Origin: Phycisphaerae bacterium
Lineage (GTDB): Bacteria; Planctomycetota; Phycisphaerae; UBA1845
Reading direction: 5' to 3'
DNA length: 52,923 nucleotides
NCBI GenBank assembly: GCA_029260215.1
Contig: JAJDDQ010000029.1
Location: forward strand, 1 to 52,923
In this document: piece after piece, positions 1 to 47,305 of the stretch
Position numbering within the stretch: position 1 is the first letter of the stretch
Layout of the letters: every line of letters starts with the position of its first letter
Notes under the pieces: model-generated
What the model saw: the letters and a program-made list of their open reading frames with translations, nothing else
Databases searched by the model: none
Told to the model about the DNA's origin: nothing
Made by a program: the position numbers and the translations under genes

Positions 1-1
1 C

Positions 2-307
2 CGGCGACTGACGAAGCGTCTGCGCCGCTATGGCGAATACATCTTCACGTTTTTGGATTATTCCTTCGTGACGGCGGACAATAACTTCGGCGAACGACAG
101 ATTCGCCCGGCGGTTATTCTGCGGAAAAACAGCCAGTCCAACCGTAGCGACCGGGGCGCCGCCACGCAGGCCGTCCTCATGAGCGTGTACCGCACCCTAC
201 GCCTTCGAGGCCTGAATCCCACACGAACCATCGTCCACGCCATGAAAAACTACCTCACCACCGGCCAACTCCCCCGATTACCCCGACGCGACATTGCAGA
301 CGGCTGA
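2..307 (+). CDS. IS66-family transposase, C-terminal fragment (5' end outside window)
   Basis: The frame is open from the first bases and ends at TGA 305-307, so only the last ~101 residues are present. They contain the signature of the end of the IS66 DDE domain: NNFGERQIRPAVILRKNSQS, then RGAATQAVLMSVYRTLRLRG and a tail ending TTGQLPRLP. In IS66 transposases the E of N-x-E-R is the last residue of the DDE triad, and it is present here. The protein would catalyse cut-and-paste or copying of its element. The accessory TnpA/TnpB proteins and left end would lie left of the window. No clear right terminal inverted repeat was found in the 16 bp before the next gene. Intactness of the element cannot be judged. 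Confidence 0.9.
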   Translation, partial: RRLTKRLRRYGEYIFTFLDYSFVTADNNFGERQIRPAVILRKNSQSNRSDRGAATQAVLMSVYRTLRLRGLNPTRTIVHAMKNYLTTGQLPRLPRRDIADG

Positions 308-322
308 TCTCTTACTTCGCTA

Positions 323-814
323 CTAATTGGCTTTTCTTTCGACACTTAAGCCGCATTCAGGGCATACGGACTTTGATGCGCGAAGATCATAGCCGCAATT
401 GGAACAATAATGTCCACCGGACTCCGTATCTTCTCTGAGAAGTCGCCGCACTCGATGCCCAATAACGGCGAGACATGTGATTCCCGGTACCCAAAGTGGC
501 AATTGAAATGCCCAGCCACCGGCGGTTACATAGACAAGCCCGAGTCTAGTACCCGAGTACGGCCCAGTGTACCAGAATGGCAACCAATATGTTCCTAGGC
601 CAGCGTATCCAAATTCGAACTCTGGTGAGCCATTTGGAACGGGGTGGAAATCGTGGCAGAACCATAGCAGCCCACCGTGGACACCACCACGATTTGCCGC
701 AATACGAAAAGTTGGATTTATGTAGCTAAGTCCCCAAAGAAAGAGCGTCGCAGTTAATGCAATCGCTGCACCAGTCGGCACGCGTCGGGCAAGTCGCCTA
801 ATTGCTACAGGCAT
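323..814 (-). CDS. small membrane protein with C-terminal zinc ribbon
   Basis: A 163-residue protein with one or two hydrophobic segments near the N-terminus (about residues 14-32), another around 105-120, and a C-terminal double-CxxC zinc ribbon (YCSNCGYDLRAS...CPECG, about residues 137-155). This ribbon is a frequent tail on short planctomycete membrane proteins whose function is unknown to me. The gene follows the Rhs gene on the same strand after about 103 bp and has similar, lower-GC codon use to the Rhs tail. That is the position expected for an immunity protein, but immunity is inference from position only. It could equally be an unrelated lineage-specific protein. Confidence 0.75.
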   Translation of the reverse strand: MPVAIRRLARRVPTGAAIALTATLFLWGLSYINPTFRIAANRGGVHGGLLWFCHDFHPVPNGSPEFEFGYAGLGTYWLPFWYTGPYSGTRLGLVYVTAGGWAFQLPLWVPGITCLAVIGHRVRRLLREDTESGGHYCSNCGYDLRASKSVCPECGLSVERKAN

Positions 815-917
815 TTACTTCTTCCGTTTCGCACACAAGGGAATCACATAGCTTCGCACGACTCGTCATCTCCAATGCGTTTTGACTCGCATGCATCATT
901 GATGTTTACAATAGAGT

Positions 918-3900
918 CTAGTCGGGCTCTCCATAGACACTTCTAAAGCTATTGCCGGGCCCTAGGGTGTCGATTGTTGGCTTCTTTTTGTATAGATCGT
1001 CAGGCTTGGTCCACCTTGGGTCGGGAGTCGCAGTAACGCAACAAGCGTCATTCAATCGTATGTATAAGATCTTGGGGCCTATGTTGACAAGCATGTTAAA
1101 CAACCCCTCGCCCTCACCAGACGCCTTTTTACCAAAATTGTTGAAAAACCAAATCACGAAATCTTTAGGGGCCGCACCACCAGGAAGACGATCAAGTTGG
1201 GTACTCATTAATTTGATTTTCGGAGCGTGTTTCAAGTTGAATGTAACTTGTCGCGCTGCTTTGCAGTCACATCCTTCATTGACCATGAAGTTAGCCAATT
1301 TGGCTCCGTCAAAATTACGGTGTAACCAAGAACTGAGAACGCGATCTCTTTCGCGTTCCGGCCGTAGATCCTTGACGACTTGGATGATTTGCTTTCCAAA
1401 CTGCTGGTGCGACAATTGTCCGCGTTGGAGTTGGTCCTGCGCTGCTTTTCTCCGATCAACAAGGTTTGTAATGGACGTCCGCACGTGGACTCTTGCCTTC
1501 CTTGCGGAAAGGAAGATCGCAAGAACCTTGTTCCAGTGCTTCCGGCAACTCTTCACAGACATCAATCCGAGAGGATCAAGAAAGCCAGCCGGGTTAGTCC
1601 GTACATATTCGTACAAATTCAACCCGTCGACGTACCCGAGCGGATCGCGTTGCAAAAACCTCCCATGCACCGGATTGTAGGCCCTGGCCCGGTAGTGGTA
1701 CAGGTCGAACGCCGGCTCGGTGATGTCCTTGACGTAGCGGTCCAGGCGGCGGCCGGTGAAGTAGTAGGGATTGCCGTACAGCGATTCGGTACGCAGAACG
1801 CCCTTGGCACTGAACACGCTCACATCACCGAAGGCGTCGTACTTGTACGTCTCGACGTCCTTGCTGCCGTCGAGCAGCAGCGTCGGCGTGTGCAGGGATT
1901 CGTGAACGTAGGTGTAGGTCTTTTCGGTAGTCACGTCGGTGAAAGCCAGGTGCTCGTCAATGTACGTTGGCCCGTCGATGAAAACACGGACCGGCGTGCC
2001 CTGACCGGTTCCCGGCACGGGCGAATCGTGCTCAGCCAGCACGCGCTGGCCGTCGTAGTAGTAGAGCGTCGCTTCGGTCGATTGACCGTCGCGGACCGTG
2101 GTCTGAATGCGCCGCCCCAGCGAGTCGTAGTCGGTGGTGGCCAATTCCGACCACGTCGGCGGATCCGGTTCGAAGCGTTCGATACGCCGCAGGCGATTCT
2201 CGAAGTCGTAGGAGTAGCGGTCAAGATTCTCATCGACGTAAACGTTGCCGGCATTGTCGTACTGAATCTCGGAACCGTCGATTGAGGCGTACTCGTTGGC
2301 CGGGTTGTTGGAGCCGTAGTTGATGATCGATCCCGCGCGGGAGTCCGAGTACTTATCTCGATTGCCGAGCGAATCGAGATTCCATTCTTCCTTGCCTCCG
2401 CCGTTGACCCAATAATTCGCTTCGGCCAGGCGGTGGAGTTTGTCGTACTTGTAGGTGATCGTGTCGTTGGCCACCGCGTGTTTGGTGATGGTGGCGGTGA
2501 GGCGGTTGCCGACGCTGTCGTACGTGTAGTCGAAGCGTGGTTTCTGGAAAGTTCTGCCGCCAGACAGCACCTCGTTGTCGATGACCAGGATGCGCCGATG
2601 ATCATCGTAATCGAGGCTGTGGAGCACGACGGCGTCCGGCTGGTATATCTGCCGCGAGTCGAGGTAAAGCCCCTGGTAGTTGTAGTTCGCAAGCTCCTCG
2701 CCGTCACGAACGATGCCTGTCACGCGATTCAAGCCGTCGTAGCCGTAGGTCAGGCACGTGTAGACCGGGCTGGAACAATCCATGCTGATGCGGTTGCCGG
2801 CCTGATCGTAGTCGTACTGGATCGTGACGGTATCGCCGCCGGTTCCGAAGTGGCGTTGCGTTTCGGACGTCATCTGCGACAGGTCATTGTACGTAAACGT
2901 CGATCGACTGAATTCAGGCGTAAGCAGCCTAGCAACGCGCTTCGTAAAGTACATGCGGCCAAGGGCGTCGAACAGGTAGGAATCAAAGAAGTCGTCCTGC
3001 GATTCCATCCTTGTTATCACCATGCCCCGCGGGTCGTAAGTGTAGTCGGTAACAATGCCGCGCTGATCCGTCCGCTGGGTACGCCGTCCGAGCCCGTCGT
3101 ATACCTCCGTGACGGTGTTGTTGCCGGAGGTGTCCGGCAGCGTCGTCTTCGTGCGCCGTCCGAACAGGTCGTACTCGTATTCCGTACGCTGATCCTGAGG
3201 ACCATCGTGGGCCTCCACGTATGCGAGACGATCCAGGCGATCGTAATCCATATCCGTCGCGCGGGCCAACTGGTCGCCGAATGCTTCCGTGGTGCGGATC
3301 AATCGGCCAAGAAGGTCATATTCTGTCTTGGTCTGCGCGCCGTTGGCGTCCGTCACAAGCGTCGCTCGGCCCGCATCGTCGTACCCGTAGCTCGTTACCA
3401 ACGTGGCCGTCCCTTGTGCGGTTTCGCTGGCCAAGCGGGCCAGCCCATCGTAATCAAACGAAAAACACCGAAGCCCAAGCGTTCCGCAGGCGTTCGGATC
3501 GGGGCACGCGCCGAGGTCGCAGACCCTGCGCTCCACAAGCAGGCCGCTGGTAATGTCGTAGACTTGAAGCGTCCAGTTGCCCCCCGCGTCGGTCATCTTG
3601 CCCGCTCGACCGATGCCGTCGAACTCGTGCGTGTTCGTGCGTGCGACCGCACTGTTCATGTTGTAGCTTTTTTCGGTGGTTTGGCGATCGTCATCGTCGT
3701 ATTCGTAGTCCGTGACCTGATCGGTCGTAACCGAGGGTGTGGCCACGCCGGACGCGGCGTTGGCCATGCGCGCGTGCTGCGTCAGCCGGTTGGCTTCGTC
3801 GTAGTACCAGCGTTCCTGCGCCACCGGTGTCATGAGGCTGCCGTCGTCATTCGTTCGTCGCACCAGATTCCCCCGGGCGTCGTAGGTCTGAACGGCGTAA

Positions 3901-45377: not shown

Positions 45378-45406
45378 GCAACCGGCGTTAATCCAAATCA
45401 ACCGCG

Positions 45407-45443
45407 ATCAGCCCCGAGGCATCGAGCTTCGGGGCTGATTTTC
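45407..45443 (+). terminator. intrinsic terminator after 43845 gene
   Basis: ATCAGCCCCGA and TCGGGGCTGAT make a perfect 11-bp stem with an 11-base loop, followed by TTT, 30 bp after the stop codon at 45377. It also lies just beyond the 3' end of the convergent cassette, so its stem may serve both directions. Confidence 0.85.
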
Positions 45444-45465: not shown

Positions 45466-45909
45466 TCATTCGGTGGTGTGGACGTAAACGATTCTGGTTT
45501 TCTTTGCGAGCGTGCTCCAAATCGTTTTTGTAAAAGGTTGACGCGCTGTCGGGACCATGACGCAGTGGTTCGCATCCTCATGTGTCGGATCCATCTCGAT
45601 ATCGAGCCCGAGGCTGCGAACGACACCGATTGAAACTGCACAAACACAAGAACCGCGTAAATTACATTGTCCAAATACCAACTCGACTAAGCGTTTTGGT
45701 GAATCGTCGTCAACCCGCACAGTCCAAGAAGGGTACTCACCGTCGCGGCGGGGTTTTAAGGCGAACGACGTTGCCGTAAGCCCAACACCCGGCCGGTCAA
45801 TCGTTGGGGGCTGACCTGACGCTGATACAAGTAGCCGACGAAGGATGATCGTGTCTTCGCCCAGCGCAGGCGTGGGTCCATCGGCCGCACTTGCGAAAAC
45901 ATCTCCCAT
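45466..45909 (-). CDS. third gene of TIGR04255 cassette; small protein of unknown function
   Basis: 147 residues, ATG 45909, with CGAGG just before it and only 12 bp after the stop of the preceding gene. No signal peptide or membrane segment. It has FALKPRRDGEYPSWTVRVDD, a central SCVCAVSIGVVRSLGLDIEM, then DPTHEDANHCVMVP with a DxxH and NHC arrangement, and PFTKTIWSTLAKKTRIVYV at the end. The order (a WxV strand, a Cys-rich turn, then an acidic-His motif and a C-terminal helix) suggests a compact alpha/beta domain that might bind metal or be catalytic. I cannot name the family. Confidence 0.7.
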   Translation of the reverse strand: MGDVFASAADGPTPALGEDTIILRRLLVSASGQPPTIDRPGVGLTATSFALKPRRDGEYPSWTVRVDDDSPKRLVELVFGQCNLRGSCVCAVSIGVVRSLGLDIEMDPTHEDANHCVMVPTARQPFTKTIWSTLAKKTRIVYVHTTE

Positions 45910-45921
45910 GCCTCGATCCGT

Positions 45922-46389
45922 CTATTGAGACAACATCGCTGACAAGTCGCCGGGAAGACGCGTGCGAGACTCGTAGTCCCGTGTTGAGTCTACTTCATCC
46001 AGGAAAACGTACTCCATGAGGCCGCTTGGCAAGATCGTCACATCCAAACTGACATTCCCCAAATCCCAGCATAAGCCGACATTGCCATCGGGCGTCGCCG
46101 CGATAGTTGGTTCATGTGCTTTGATACTGCTTGCAATCGCATATATAACTTCGACGGCCACTACGATGGAACGATTGTCCACTGTCACAGCGCCGTAGCT
46201 ATCCCAATTCGGCTCAAGCTCGGATAGGCCTTTGATACTTTGCACGACGCAATCCAGCCAGGAAGGAGGATGAAGTCTACCGTAACCCCAGGAAAAGGCT
46301 TGGGTGTCGGTTGTCGTCGTGACTATTGGAACAACGTGGTTGTAGACATCGATTGATTGAAAAAATGCACTCAATGTATTCGCCCCCAT
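45922..46389 (-). CDS. second gene of TIGR04255 cassette; WDSYGA-motif small protein
   Basis: 155 residues, ATG 46389. It overlaps the end of the TIGR04255-like gene by 19 bp. Residues ~50-130 hold LSELEPNWDSYGAVTVDNRS, then IAATPDGNVGLCWDLGNVSL and VTILPSGLMEYVFLD. The NWDxYGA segment followed by a DGxVxLxW segment recurs in short uncharacterised bacterial proteins; I do not know a proven role. The first 45 residues are variable. No catalytic motif is clear. Cytoplasmic by sequence. Its placement between two other cassette genes suggests a complex or toxin/antitoxin-like unit, which is inference. Confidence 0.72.
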   Translation of the reverse strand: MGANTLSAFFQSIDVYNHVVPIVTTTTDTQAFSWGYGRLHPPSWLDCVVQSIKGLSELEPNWDSYGAVTVDNRSIVVAVEVIYAIASSIKAHEPTIAATPDGNVGLCWDLGNVSLDVTILPSGLMEYVFLDEVDSTRDYESRTRLPGDLSAMLSQ

Positions 46390-47180
46390 CGCTCATCTTG
46401 AATTCGACGCTCCGTGAGACACGCAAAACCGCACACGACCCAGTCGTGGGCGAGGCGTAGTGATCCCGCCACATCTTGCGGACCTTCGTCTTTGTGCAGC
46501 ACTCGCCCTGTCAGCCTCAATGCAACGAAATCACCTTGATCGGGTTTGTCCTGGAGAACGGCAATCGATGCCTCAGCGTACAATCGGCCTGCATTTTCGG
46601 GAATCACAAACACCCGATTAAACGTGACAGCCTCGGGAATGGGCAGGAATGTGTCAGACAAATCCCATTCCACGCCCGCGAAGACCGTCGCAAACAAGCC
46701 GGATGCCGATTCGCCCTTTTCGGGAAAAATGTGGTTGACGTAAGTGACTTCACAGAGTTGTGGGGCCGGCGTCTCCAAGCCACTTCGCTCGCAAAATGTC
46801 TGAAACGCTTCGAACTCGGATCGGAAACGTTCGACGTTGGCCTCAAACGAAGGGTAGGTATTGTCTTCTCCCAATCGCCAATTGAGCAAGAAGCGATCCG
46901 GCTGAACTTGTATCAACTCGGTCTCACTGGCCGATGAAAACCAGACGCGTTCCGGCGTCCCGCTGCCCACCCGAAATTCTGGCCGTTGCGAGGCATACCG
47001 CTTAGGAAAATTCTCGGAAACTTGGGGCAAGCGAGCCTGATCGGTTGGCGTCGGAAACTTGTCAGCAATGGTCGACCAGTACGTCCCAAAATGCGCGTTC
47101 CGGAACCCCAACAACTCCGGAAACTGCACGCTTATGACCGTTTCGACAACGGGTGGATTCTCATATTTCGGTGTCGACAC
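46371..47180 (-). CDS. TIGR04255-like protein, first gene of three-gene cassette
   Basis: 269 residues from GTG 47180, with GAAGGAG 7 bases upstream. The N-terminus KYENPPVVETVISVQFPELL is the usual start of the sporadically distributed TIGR04255 family (PPVxExVxxVxF). LIQVQPDRFLLNWRLGEDNT, YPSFEANVERFRSEFEAFQT, and CEVTYVNHIFP match the middle (output line with WR, then ELxYxN). The last third is beta-rich with VALRLTGRVL and LRLAHDWVVCGFACL. The function of this family is unknown. Patchy distribution, lower G+C than neighbours, and a tight operon with two small proteins point to a mobile accessory module. Confidence 0.82.
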   Translation of the reverse strand: MSTPKYENPPVVETVISVQFPELLGFRNAHFGTYWSTIADKFPTPTDQARLPQVSENFPKRYASQRPEFRVGSGTPERVWFSSASETELIQVQPDRFLLNWRLGEDNTYPSFEANVERFRSEFEAFQTFCERSGLETPAPQLCEVTYVNHIFPEKGESASGLFATVFAGVEWDLSDTFLPIPEAVTFNRVFVIPENAGRLYAEASIAVLQDKPDQGDFVALRLTGRVLHKDEGPQDVAGSLRLAHDWVVCGFACLTERRIQDERWGRIH

Positions 47181-47206
47181 AATCCTACTCCTTCAGATAC
47201 CACTTG

Positions 47207-47215
47207 ATTATAGCA
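47207..47215 (-). promoter_or_regulatory. extended -10 promoter for TIGR04255 cassette
   Basis: On the minus strand the bases read TGCTATAAT, a perfect TATAAT with the TG extension. The motif begins ~27 bp upstream of GTG 47180 and is followed by the strong GAAGGAG ribosome-binding site. A TTGACG farther upstream (47235-47240) is 22 bases away, too far for a normal -35, so the extended -10 would carry the promoter. It serves only this cassette. Confidence 0.55.
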
Positions 47216-47305
47216 TCCTCACCTGCGGTGGCGACGTCAAGCCTCGATTCAAGCCCGACGATTCCAACCGCTTGCCAATTCCACGATTGCTGCCAAAATC
47301 CAATC

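What the first reader, a model, noticed from the sequence alone, without database searches (positions are those of the whole stretch)
45466..47215. Compact three-gene accessory cassette headed by a TIGR04255-like protein
The sequence shows three overlapping or nearly touching genes (19-bp overlap, 12-bp gap) on one strand, with their own extended -10 promoter and strong ribosome-binding site, G+C visibly lower than both neighbours, and a terminator just beyond the end. TIGR04255 is a known, patchily distributed family without assigned function. Its two partners, a WDSYGA-motif protein and a 147-residue protein with DxxH and NHC motifs, are also uncharacterised. Patchy, self-contained operons of small cytoplasmic proteins are often defence, toxin-antitoxin or effector-immunity systems; that last step is inference.
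Basis: partly seen in the sequence, partly recalled or inferred. Interest (0 to 1): 0.72.

Follow-up and report, generated by a model that had tools for sequence, protein, structure and literature searches.

The report
Three-gene cassette, swappable toxin-like effector
A patchily inherited set of three small bacterial genes turns out to be a conserved module, also seen on viral contigs and a plasmid, that looks like a self-poisoning or phage-defence system whose last gene is predicted to be shaped like an ADP-ribosylating enzyme.

Summary
The cassette is real: TIGR04255 protein (P1), WDSYGA protein (P2) and a 147-residue protein (P3), minus strand 47180-45466, G+C 53.7% against 59.5% for the window. 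It is a conserved unit. In 294 genomes of the phylum, 18 of 21 P3 places lie beside P2 and 15 of 21 also beside TIGR04255, all 15 in the order P1-P2-P3. Of 80 loci found by P1 alone, 51 carry P2 and P3, in at least nine phyla. All three viral contigs found with P1 carry the three genes. P2 and P3 are relatives of PADLOC's defence candidate PDC-M32, where P2 is fused to a different N-terminal domain in place of P1. P1 also occurs with other pairs that end in PIN, HEPN, DUF7689 or a 'CDLE' protein. Every structure that the P3 model matches at Z 4 or more is of the ADP-ribosyltransferase clan; conserved R, S and H sit on strands 1, 2 and 5. Best reading: a tripartite toxin-antitoxin-like module with P1 as shared carrier or sensor, P2 as cognate linker or antitoxin, P3 as effector. 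Function is inferred, sequence profiles do not support the fold, and the third triad residue is not canonical.

The parts
46371..47180 (-). P1: TIGR04255 family protein, 269 aa, GTG start; shared carrier/sensor component of the module (role inferred)
   Evidence: NCBIfam TIGR04255 69 bits, cut-off 30; AlphaFold2 model pLDDT 93.2, pTM 0.91, resembling guanido-kinase catalytic domains, TBP and AdoMetDC
45922..46389 (-). P2: WDSYGA protein, 155 aa; cognate partner of P3 (proposed linker/antitoxin)
   Evidence: Matches C-terminal 261-353 of PADLOC PDC-M32A, E 2.6e-5; 39 of 50 family members match; fused to another N-terminal domain in PDC-M32A-type plasmid proteins
45466..45909 (-). P3: 147-aa protein with predicted ADP-ribosyltransferase fold, conserved R24, S61, H115; proposed effector
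   Evidence: Model pLDDT 88.9; all 22 PDB entries listed at Z 4 or more are ART families (families named); S in 95 of 95, H in 90 of 90, R in 86 of 95; at least 3 of 44 members match PDC-M32B
47207..47234 (-). Candidate extended -10 promoter (TCGCCA, 16 nt, TATAAT with TG)
   Evidence: Consensus scan, 10 of 12; not above shuffle expectation
47188..47193 (-). Ribosome-binding site (AAGGAG) of P1
   Evidence: Read from the sequence
45406..45440 (+). 15-bp hairpin, terminator-like for the convergent left-hand gene; lies just beyond the cassette end
   Evidence: Terminator-like site with T-run on the + strand

Best explanation
The cassette is a mobile three-gene toxin-antitoxin-like conflict module. 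P3 is the effector: a small intracellular protein with the ADP-ribosyltransferase fold, predicted to use NAD+ (or an ADP-ribosyl or phosphate-bearing relative) through its conserved Arg (strand 1), Ser (strand 2) and His (front edge of strand 5). P2 is its dedicated partner, which holds P3 in check and couples it to P1. P1, the TIGR04255 protein, is a shared carrier or sensor: the same P1 family is combined elsewhere with other middle gene/effector pairs, including PIN and HEPN RNase-type proteins. On a trigger such as phage infection, P1 would let go of P2, and P3 would stop growth or phage production, as the SecB-like chaperone does for antitoxin and ADP-ribosyltransferase toxin in CmdTAC. 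Shown here: conserved gene set and order, co-inheritance, swapping of partners, viral-contig and plasmid carriage. Predicted: the P3 fold and residue positions. Inferred: which protein is toxin, antitoxin and sensor, the trigger, and the chemistry.
For: Linkage: in 294 genomes, 18 of 21 P3 places beside P2, 15 of 21 beside both (window included), 15 of 15 in order P1-P2-P3. P1-only search: 51 of 80 loci with P2 and P3 downstream; 47 of them with a whole P1 and P3 come from nine phyla. In the 80 loci the P2 and P3 profiles, iterated on all ORFs, hit only at the cassette position, 54 of 54 and 53 of 53. Co-inheritance: distances correlate, rho 0.63-0.78, best of 999 permutations under 0.25. Exchange: 161 distinct P1 proteins, 86 with P2+P3, 14 PIN, 4 HEPN-type, 10 DUF7689, 19 CDLE type; P2 and P3 never with those other pairs (Pfam names for examples). 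Known candidate: PDC-M32A/B models match P2/P3 members; the two-gene form is read directly on three plasmids. Mobility: all three viral contigs found with P1 carry the full cassette, one between tail genes, one beside an integrase; M. paragordonae plasmid copy next to mobF. Fold: all 22 entries listed at Z 4 or more are of six ART families; conserved R, S, H on strands 1, 2 and 5 of the model, the ART triad positions. Precedent: CmdTAC (PMC11618068, abstract and sections 4, 6 and 12 read).
Against: Best Z for P3 is 7.6, within the range that models without a clear match reach. Foldseek alone gives no E below 0.001 in PDB; only 2 of its first 50 rows (AvrPphF ORF2 and Tse2, E 0.26 and 0.33) are ART structures, and many others are gyrase or topoisomerase chains. 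Profile comparison of P3 with DUF952 and KptA gives probabilities under 1%, and Pfam and PDB sequence searches are empty. The third triad residue is His, where the described clades have Glu, Asp, Gln or a hydrophobic residue, so P3 may do other chemistry or none. The SecB-like fold that a TAC chaperone would have did not appear for P1. No antitoxin family was recognised among ten middle proteins of other cassettes. P1 is on average more alike within a phylum (45%) than between phyla (37%), so part of the history is vertical. The window locus sits among housekeeping-type genes (my reading), not in a defence island. Neighbour defence genes have no control.
Confidence: 0.52

Rival explanations
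1. P3 is a non-toxic ADP-ribosyltransferase-fold protein (a nucleotide or RNA-end processing enzyme, or an inactive ligand-binding relative such as the DUF952 type), and the module is a small accessory metabolic, RNA-repair or sensing operon rather than a toxin system.
For: The best fold matches are Tpt1/KptA, an RNA 2'-phosphotransferase; the DUF952 protein CC0527 is also matched (that DUF952 has no known activity is recalled). His stands where the described triads have another residue. The window copy lies among ordinary genes (my reading).
Against: P1 is exchanged among pairs that end in PIN and HEPN domains, both typical toxin folds; carried by viral contigs and plasmids; patchy and in nine phyla; related to a PADLOC defence candidate.
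Confidence: 0.25
2. P1 (TIGR04255) is itself the active element (enzyme or toxin) and P2 and P3 are a two-protein regulator or immunity pair.
For: P1 is the first and longest gene and has invariant polar residues in 75 aligned sequences (Q91, Q93, N100, E144, N149); fold searches place it near guanido-kinase and AdoMetDC domains.
Against: P1 is the constant part while the other two genes are swapped for pairs that include PIN and HEPN domains; a two-gene form with P2 and P3 but without P1 exists; Z about 9 at 4 Angstrom rmsd does not show guanido-kinase function.
Confidence: 0.1
3. The cassette is a prophage or plasmid accessory gene set with a role other than defence, for example superinfection exclusion or interference with rival elements, kept only while the element lives.
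For: Full cassette inside a tail gene cluster in one viral contig and beside an integrase in another; mobF plasmid neighbour.
Against: The genome collection gave 201 P1 relatives, the viral collection three contigs (other patterns were used in part), and single-protein searches of the plasmid and phage collections found one plasmid record or none. This reading overlaps with the best explanation rather than excluding it.
Confidence: 0.12

Closest known systems
PADLOC candidate PDC-M32 (PDC-M32A + PDC-M32B)
   Same: The C-terminal domain of PDC-M32A is the P2 family (39 of 50 members match) and PDC-M32B is related to the P3 family (at least 3 of 44 match); on three plasmids the two lie side by side in the same order (found by similarity to a PDC-M32A-matching protein, not scanned against PADLOC themselves).
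   Different: There the P2 domain is fused to a different N-terminal domain of about 250 aa; here P2 is a separate gene and TIGR04255 takes that place. The one paper found that names PDC-M32 gives it no function (PMC12429752, passages read).
CmdTAC and other toxin-antitoxin-chaperone (TAC) systems
   Same: Three genes; one component type shared by different toxin-antitoxin pairs; an ADP-ribosyltransferase-fold effector in CmdTAC (PMC11618068, abstract and sections 4, 6, 12; PMC5105189, passages).
   Different: The shared component is TIGR04255, for whose model no SecB entry was listed; it comes first in the operon; the effector residues are R-S-H, not H-Y-[EDQ]; neutralisation is untested.
ADP-ribosyltransferase clan (Tpt1/KptA, DUF952, AvrPphF ORF2, Tse2, DarT)
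   Same: Predicted fold; conserved residues on strands 1, 2 and 5.
   Different: No detectable sequence similarity; His in the third triad position.
TIGR04255 family (NCBIfam)
   Same: P1 is a member by score.
   Different: 0 papers in the held library name the family; here it is seen to be the common part of several three-gene cassettes.

Membership tests
NCBIfam TIGR04255 | Score over the curated cut-off across the profile | tested here: met
   69 bits against 30, profile 1-240 of 252
PADLOC PDC-M32 | A protein with the P2-type C-terminal domain | tested here: met
   Window P2 E 2.6e-5 to PDC-M32A 261-353
PADLOC PDC-M32 | That domain carried on a ~375 aa protein with the PDC-M32A N-terminal domain | tested here: not met
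   P2 is a 155-aa separate gene; P1 has no PADLOC match at E up to 1
PADLOC PDC-M32 | PDC-M32B beside it | tested here: inconclusive
   Window P3 itself does not match; at least 3 of 44 family members do; the P3 profile matches the small protein of three plasmid PDC-M32-type pairs, E 9e-10 to 8e-16 for 1000 sequences
ADP-ribosyltransferase clan | ART fold | tested here: met
   Predicted model only; 22 of 22 PDB entries listed at Z 4 or more are ART families, best Z 7.6, rmsd 3.0 over 95 residues; Foldseek alone not significant
ADP-ribosyltransferase clan | One of the described triads H-H-h, H-Y-[EDQ], R-[ST]-E | tested here: not met
   R-S-H at the positions (triads from PMC7955679 passages)
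ADP-ribosyltransferase clan | Profile similarity to a clan family | tested here: not met
   Pfam none. hhalign, 44-row P3 alignment: DUF952 score 9.6, shuffles mean 10.0, reversed 12.0; KptA 15.2, shuffles mean 11.9 and best of 40 16.6, reversed 11.8. 95-row set: probability under 1% for both
ADP-ribosyltransferase clan | NAD-dependent transfer activity | not testable with these tools
   Bench assay needed
Toxin-antitoxin-chaperone (TAC) systems | Three genes of one operon, one component shared among different toxin-antitoxin pairs | tested here: inconclusive
   Three genes in fixed order with one part shared among different pairs is shown; that the pairs are toxin and antitoxin is not; co-transcription is inferred from overlap
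Toxin-antitoxin-chaperone (TAC) systems | Chaperone related to SecB | tested here: inconclusive
   No SecB entry among the listed structure matches of the P1 model; absence from the list does not exclude it
Toxin-antitoxin-chaperone (TAC) systems | Toxicity and neutralisation dependent on the third component | not testable with these tools
   Bench assay needed

The most novel reading that the evidence does not exclude
TIGR04255 proteins define a new class of tripartite conflict modules in which one shared carrier/sensor protein is combined with exchangeable linker-effector pairs (ART-fold, PIN, HEPN, DUF7689, CDLE-type), a second route to the TAC principle without SecB; and the P3/PDC-M32B family is an undescribed ADP-ribosyltransferase clade with an R-S-H triad and therefore possibly a new ADP-ribosyl or phosphoryl transfer chemistry used against phages.
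Probability: 0.33. Interest if true: 0.82.

Novelty: new variant of a known kind. Interest (0 to 1): 0.62.

Why it matters
It gives a family with no assigned function (TIGR04255) a testable role as the constant part of modules whose effectors are swapped, and gives the defence candidate PDC-M32 a proposed effector and an alternative gene architecture. If right, one binding partner could be probed against several effector types, and a compact ADP-ribosyltransferase-fold family with an unusual third active-site residue would be open to direct biochemical test.

Tried and rejected
SecB-like P1: my first idea, from the order of strands and helices in the model; the structure searches listed guanido kinases, AdoMetDC and TBP and no SecB, so P1 is not called a SecB relative.

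Sequence proof of the ART fold: hhalign of the 44-row P3 alignment against DUF952 (8 sequences) and KptA (8) gave probabilities under 1%; the DUF952 score was at the shuffled mean, the KptA score above the reversed decoy and the shuffled mean but below the best of 40 shuffles. With 95 P3 and 32 DUF952 sequences the probability stayed under 1% (without decoys). Pfam on 44 members and PDB sequences gave nothing. One search was given an unsuitable stretch and found nothing; the DUF952-PDB link (CC0527) was then seen.

A relation of the PDC-M32A N-terminal domain to P1 was not seen: the P1 profile does not match the three plasmid PDC-M32A-type proteins. In L184 a 307-aa gene matches only that domain (profile 4-252); the gene after it reads like a PIN protein to me (no family search made). 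A search of 240 genomes of the class of G355 with the PDC-M32A model found 5, all by the P2 part only.

Antitoxin families in the middle proteins of PIN, HEPN and CDLE cassettes: none found by Pfam in ten proteins. A search of 149 genomes with one such middle protein gave 3 matches, in its last third; two lie in genomes and contigs where one search has TIGR04255 close by, the third is a short ORF near a contig end (L290), so it decides nothing.

Defence islands: 139 of 178 neighbour ORFs were scanned. The 25 PADLOC models listed of 159 matched include BREX, type I, II and III restriction-modification, HEC and MADS genes, one member each, and one protein can match several models. The planned control was not built, so no enrichment is claimed. 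The 25 Pfam families listed of 159 are mostly of metabolic or housekeeping kind. tblastn of single proteins found nothing for P2 and P3 in plasmids and P3 and P1 in phages and one plasmid record for P1.

P3 places without P2/P1 (3 of 21): one (L032) follows a 374-aa protein that begins like the PDC-M32A N-terminal domain, whose C-terminus I did not compare with P2; one lies beside what reads like a transposase gene (L250); one (L036) is weak and was not found again by the later profile. Rows left out before alignments: P3 10 of 53, P1 8 of 82, P2 5 of 54 locus members (truncated, duplicate or very divergent); one search uses 47 cassettes with P1 of 240 residues or more and P3 over 110.
Full report
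Observation. The window (G000 contig 22; 4.97 Mb, 88 contigs, 97% complete) carries three minus-strand ORFs at 47180-46371, 46389-45922 and 45909-45466, overlapping by 19 bases and then 12 bases apart. P1 is a TIGR04255 protein (69 bits, cut-off 30). P2 and P3 have no Pfam, NCBIfam or PHROGs match above a cut-off; P2 matches the C-terminal part of the PADLOC candidate PDC-M32A (E 2.6e-5, profile 261-353 of 375). G+C is 53.7% against 59.5% for the window and about 60% for both neighbours; third-position G+C is 52-59% against 71-79%. The promoter is a consensus match no commoner than in shuffles, and the hairpin beyond the end is oriented as a terminator of the opposite gene.

The unit is conserved. 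TIGR04255 occurs in 24 of 60 genomes of the order, 18 of 36 in the window's family, own genome included. In 9 of the 20 loci first fetched, the window's included, the next two genes on the same strand are P2-like and P3-like; for two of the nine (L004, L007) the P3 score is weak. Profiles of P2 and P3 built from those loci (P2 with nine rows, P3 with eight, L004 left out) were then used separately on 294 genomes of the phylum: P3 gave 21 places in 16 genomes, P2 35 places in 24, TIGR04255 67 places in 51. 18 of 21 P3 places have P2 beside them, 15 of 21 also TIGR04255, and 15 of 15 are in the order P1-P2-P3; without the window 17 and 14 of 20, and 14 of 14. P1 members that the TIGR04255 search misses exist (for example beside the P3 of G140), so 15 is a lower bound.

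A scan of one genome per species with P1 alone kept the best 80 of 201 relatives. 51 of the 80 have P2 and P3 downstream, 2 only P2, 2 only P3, 25 neither. Within these loci the two profiles, iterated on all ORFs held, hit nowhere else (54 of 54 and 53 of 53 at the cassette position). 47 of them plus the window were compared: distances of P1, P2 and P3 correlate (rho 0.63, 0.70, 0.78; best of 999 permutations under 0.25), they come from nine phyla, and the nearest P1 lies in the same phylum in 25 of 46 cases; mean P1 identity is 45% within and 37% between phyla. The window's nearest P1 relatives are 47-49% identical and come from Planctomycetota (two) and Acidobacteriota (one). I read this as a unit that is inherited together and has crossed phyla, with some vertical descent.

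The site is not fixed. The neighbouring aldehyde dehydrogenase is found in 36 of 60 genomes at E up to 1e-100. None of the 19 other copies fetched, with at most 1.5 kb on each side, has a P1, P2 or P3 hit.

Mobile carriage. P1 searches of viral contigs gave three distinct contigs, and all three carry P1-P2-P3. In one the cassette lies between a minor tail protein and a long tail protein with J similarity; in another it is followed by an integrase gene on the other strand (PHROGs). The third looks to me to have an integrase-like gene on one side and a terminase-like gene further off; no family search was left to confirm it. A Mycobacterium paragordonae plasmid has TIGR04255, P2 and P3 next to mobF.

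Partners are exchanged. Among 161 distinct P1 proteins in the loci held at that point, 86 are followed by P2+P3, 2 by P2 only, 1 by P3 only, 14 by a PIN protein, 4 by a HEPN-type protein, 10 by a DUF7689 protein, 19 by a protein with a 'CDLE' motif, 23 by something else (16 of these with at most 1.5 kb visible), and 2 are cut off. Part of this set was fetched because of P2/P3 hits; in the set found by P1 alone the numbers are 52 P2+P3, 6 PIN, 4 HEPN, 4 DUF7689 and 8 CDLE of 79, the other five being partial, cut off or other. Pfam confirms PIN in three of three tested, HEPN in one of three tested, and DUF7689 in one of one; one CDLE protein tested has no Pfam family. The other HEPN assignments rest on my profile and a recalled motif. 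P2 and P3 are not found with those other pairs. So P1 is the constant part, and each effector-like last gene has its own middle gene.

The same P2-P3 pair without P1. PADLOC's PDC-M32 consists of a protein of about 375 residues and a small one. 39 of 50 P2 members match PDC-M32A and at least 3 of 44 P3 members match PDC-M32B. Three plasmid examples (Limnohabitans, Rhizobium, Rhodococcus), found with a protein that matches the PDC-M32A N-terminal part, show it directly: 373-401 residues with P2 at the C-terminus, then a 139-143 residue P3. Their N-terminal 250 residues do not match the P1 profile; a gene matching that part alone occurs in L184. The fusion suggests that P2 is what couples P3 to whichever carrier is present (inference).

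What P3 is. The AlphaFold2 model (44 sequences) has pLDDT 88.9 and pTM 0.82. Of the 1000 chains that Foldseek ranks highest, every entry that VIA-align lists at Z 4 or more (22) is an ADP-ribosyltransferase-type protein: Tpt1/KptA (best Z 7.6, 3.0 Angstrom over 95 residues), AvrPphF ORF2, Tse2, the DUF952 protein CC0527, DarT and cholera toxin A; the next rows fall to Z 2.6 and below. Foldseek's own ranking is not significant: no E below 0.001, and only AvrPphF ORF2 and Tse2 among the first 50 rows are ART structures. The families are named as ART clan or known ART domains in PMC7955679 (passages read; that cholera toxin A is Pfam's Enterotoxin_a is recalled). That paper places the active-site triad on strands 1, 2 and 5, the last at the front edge of strand 5. 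In 95 P3 sequences the best conserved residues are S (95 of 95) and H (90 of 90 with a letter there), then R and a Phe (86 of 95 each). In the model R24 lies in strand 21-26, S61 is the first residue of strand 61-64 and H115 the first of strand 115-120. Leaving out the short hairpin 36-46, the strands are 21-26, 61-64, 88-93, 102-106, 115-120 and 139-143, so R, S and H fall on strands 1, 2 and 5 (the counting of strands is mine, and I could not inspect coordinates). This agreement comes from conservation, not from the structure search, and is the strongest argument for the fold. Against it: Z below 8 and no sequence-profile support. The viral-structure library gave one protein of 149 residues with probability 1.00, E 0.0022 and no name at hand. 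His in place of Glu is not one of the three described triads; the reaction may differ from ordinary ADP-ribosylation, or be lost.

What P1 is. The model (75 sequences) has pLDDT 93.2. Foldseek's only match below E 0.001 is an AdoMetDC/prozyme chain, followed by TBP and McsB; VIA-align lists creatine and arginine kinase catalytic domains (Z up to 9.1, about 4 Angstrom). No sequence relation to them was found. I take this as a binding scaffold, not as evidence of kinase activity.

How it most likely works. By analogy with CmdTAC (PMC11618068: abstract, sections 4, 6 and 12 read), where a SecB-like chaperone, an antitoxin and an ADP-ribosyltransferase form a complex that phage capsid protein takes apart, P1 would hold P2 and through it P3. 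A trigger that takes P1 away would free P3. TAC systems likewise combine SecB-like chaperones with toxin-antitoxin pairs of several families (PMC5105189, passages read). The assignments of toxin, antitoxin and sensor are inference.

Context of defence. Of 139 neighbour ORFs of cassettes (178 available) some match BREX, restriction-modification, HEC and MADS models; the Pfam families listed for the same set are mostly of metabolic or housekeeping kind (25 of 159 shown). Without a control this is only suggestive. The window copy itself lies between a calcium-binding-repeat-like protein gene and aldehyde dehydrogenase genes (my reading).

Literature. Searches for TIGR04255 gave 0 papers; PDC-M32 gave one, which reports it as found by PADLOC in prophages of Sinorhizobium meliloti (passages). 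These searches cover the held open-licence library only.

Verdict. A real, ordinary-looking three-gene operon that is in fact a conserved, mobile, modular unit. I file it as a variant of the PDC-M32/tripartite toxin-antitoxin kind, not as a member of PDC-M32, TAC or CmdTAC, because defining features of each were not met, inconclusive or not testable.

Noticed in passing
L153:9449-9901, L162:3842-4291, L167:9536-10048, L179:6613-7158: P1 is followed by a middle protein and a DUF7689-type protein with NC(I/V)AWAA and (T/S)HAARQL motifs (Pfam confirmed for L162 only); a conserved Cys and His suggest a papain-like peptidase (my guess).
   Followed up: partly
L107:9206-9778, L118:9213-9818, L147:9443-10021, L165:6370-6981, L183:2106-2669: P1 followed by a middle protein and a protein with a (Q)(A/T/D)CD(L/I) motif and a strongly conserved PPYREHL(S/A)Q(A/S)FARFFMRVGLP end; no Pfam family in the one tested (L107).
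   Followed up: partly
L171:8777-9942, L151:8720-10006, L135:8771-9885, L160:8792-9611: P1 followed by a long middle protein and a HEPN-type protein (Pfam HEPN in L171; L135 and L151 below threshold; L160 not tested): another RNase-type effector in the same slot.
   Followed up: partly
L184:1483-2807: The N-terminal domain of PDC-M32A occurs as a separate gene directly before a gene that reads like a PIN protein, so this domain too may serve several effectors.
   Followed up: partly
L012:1483-3741: A TIGR04255 gene is followed by a 262-aa protein and a metallo-beta-lactamase-fold-like protein (read by eye).
   Followed up: no
L250:1177-3420: A lone P3 lies beside a transposase-like gene on the other strand (read by eye), perhaps the remnant of a disrupted cassette.
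   Followed up: no
window 1-2000: The left end of the window has the lowest G+C of the window (49-53% in 1-kb windows), lower than the cassette.
   Followed up: no
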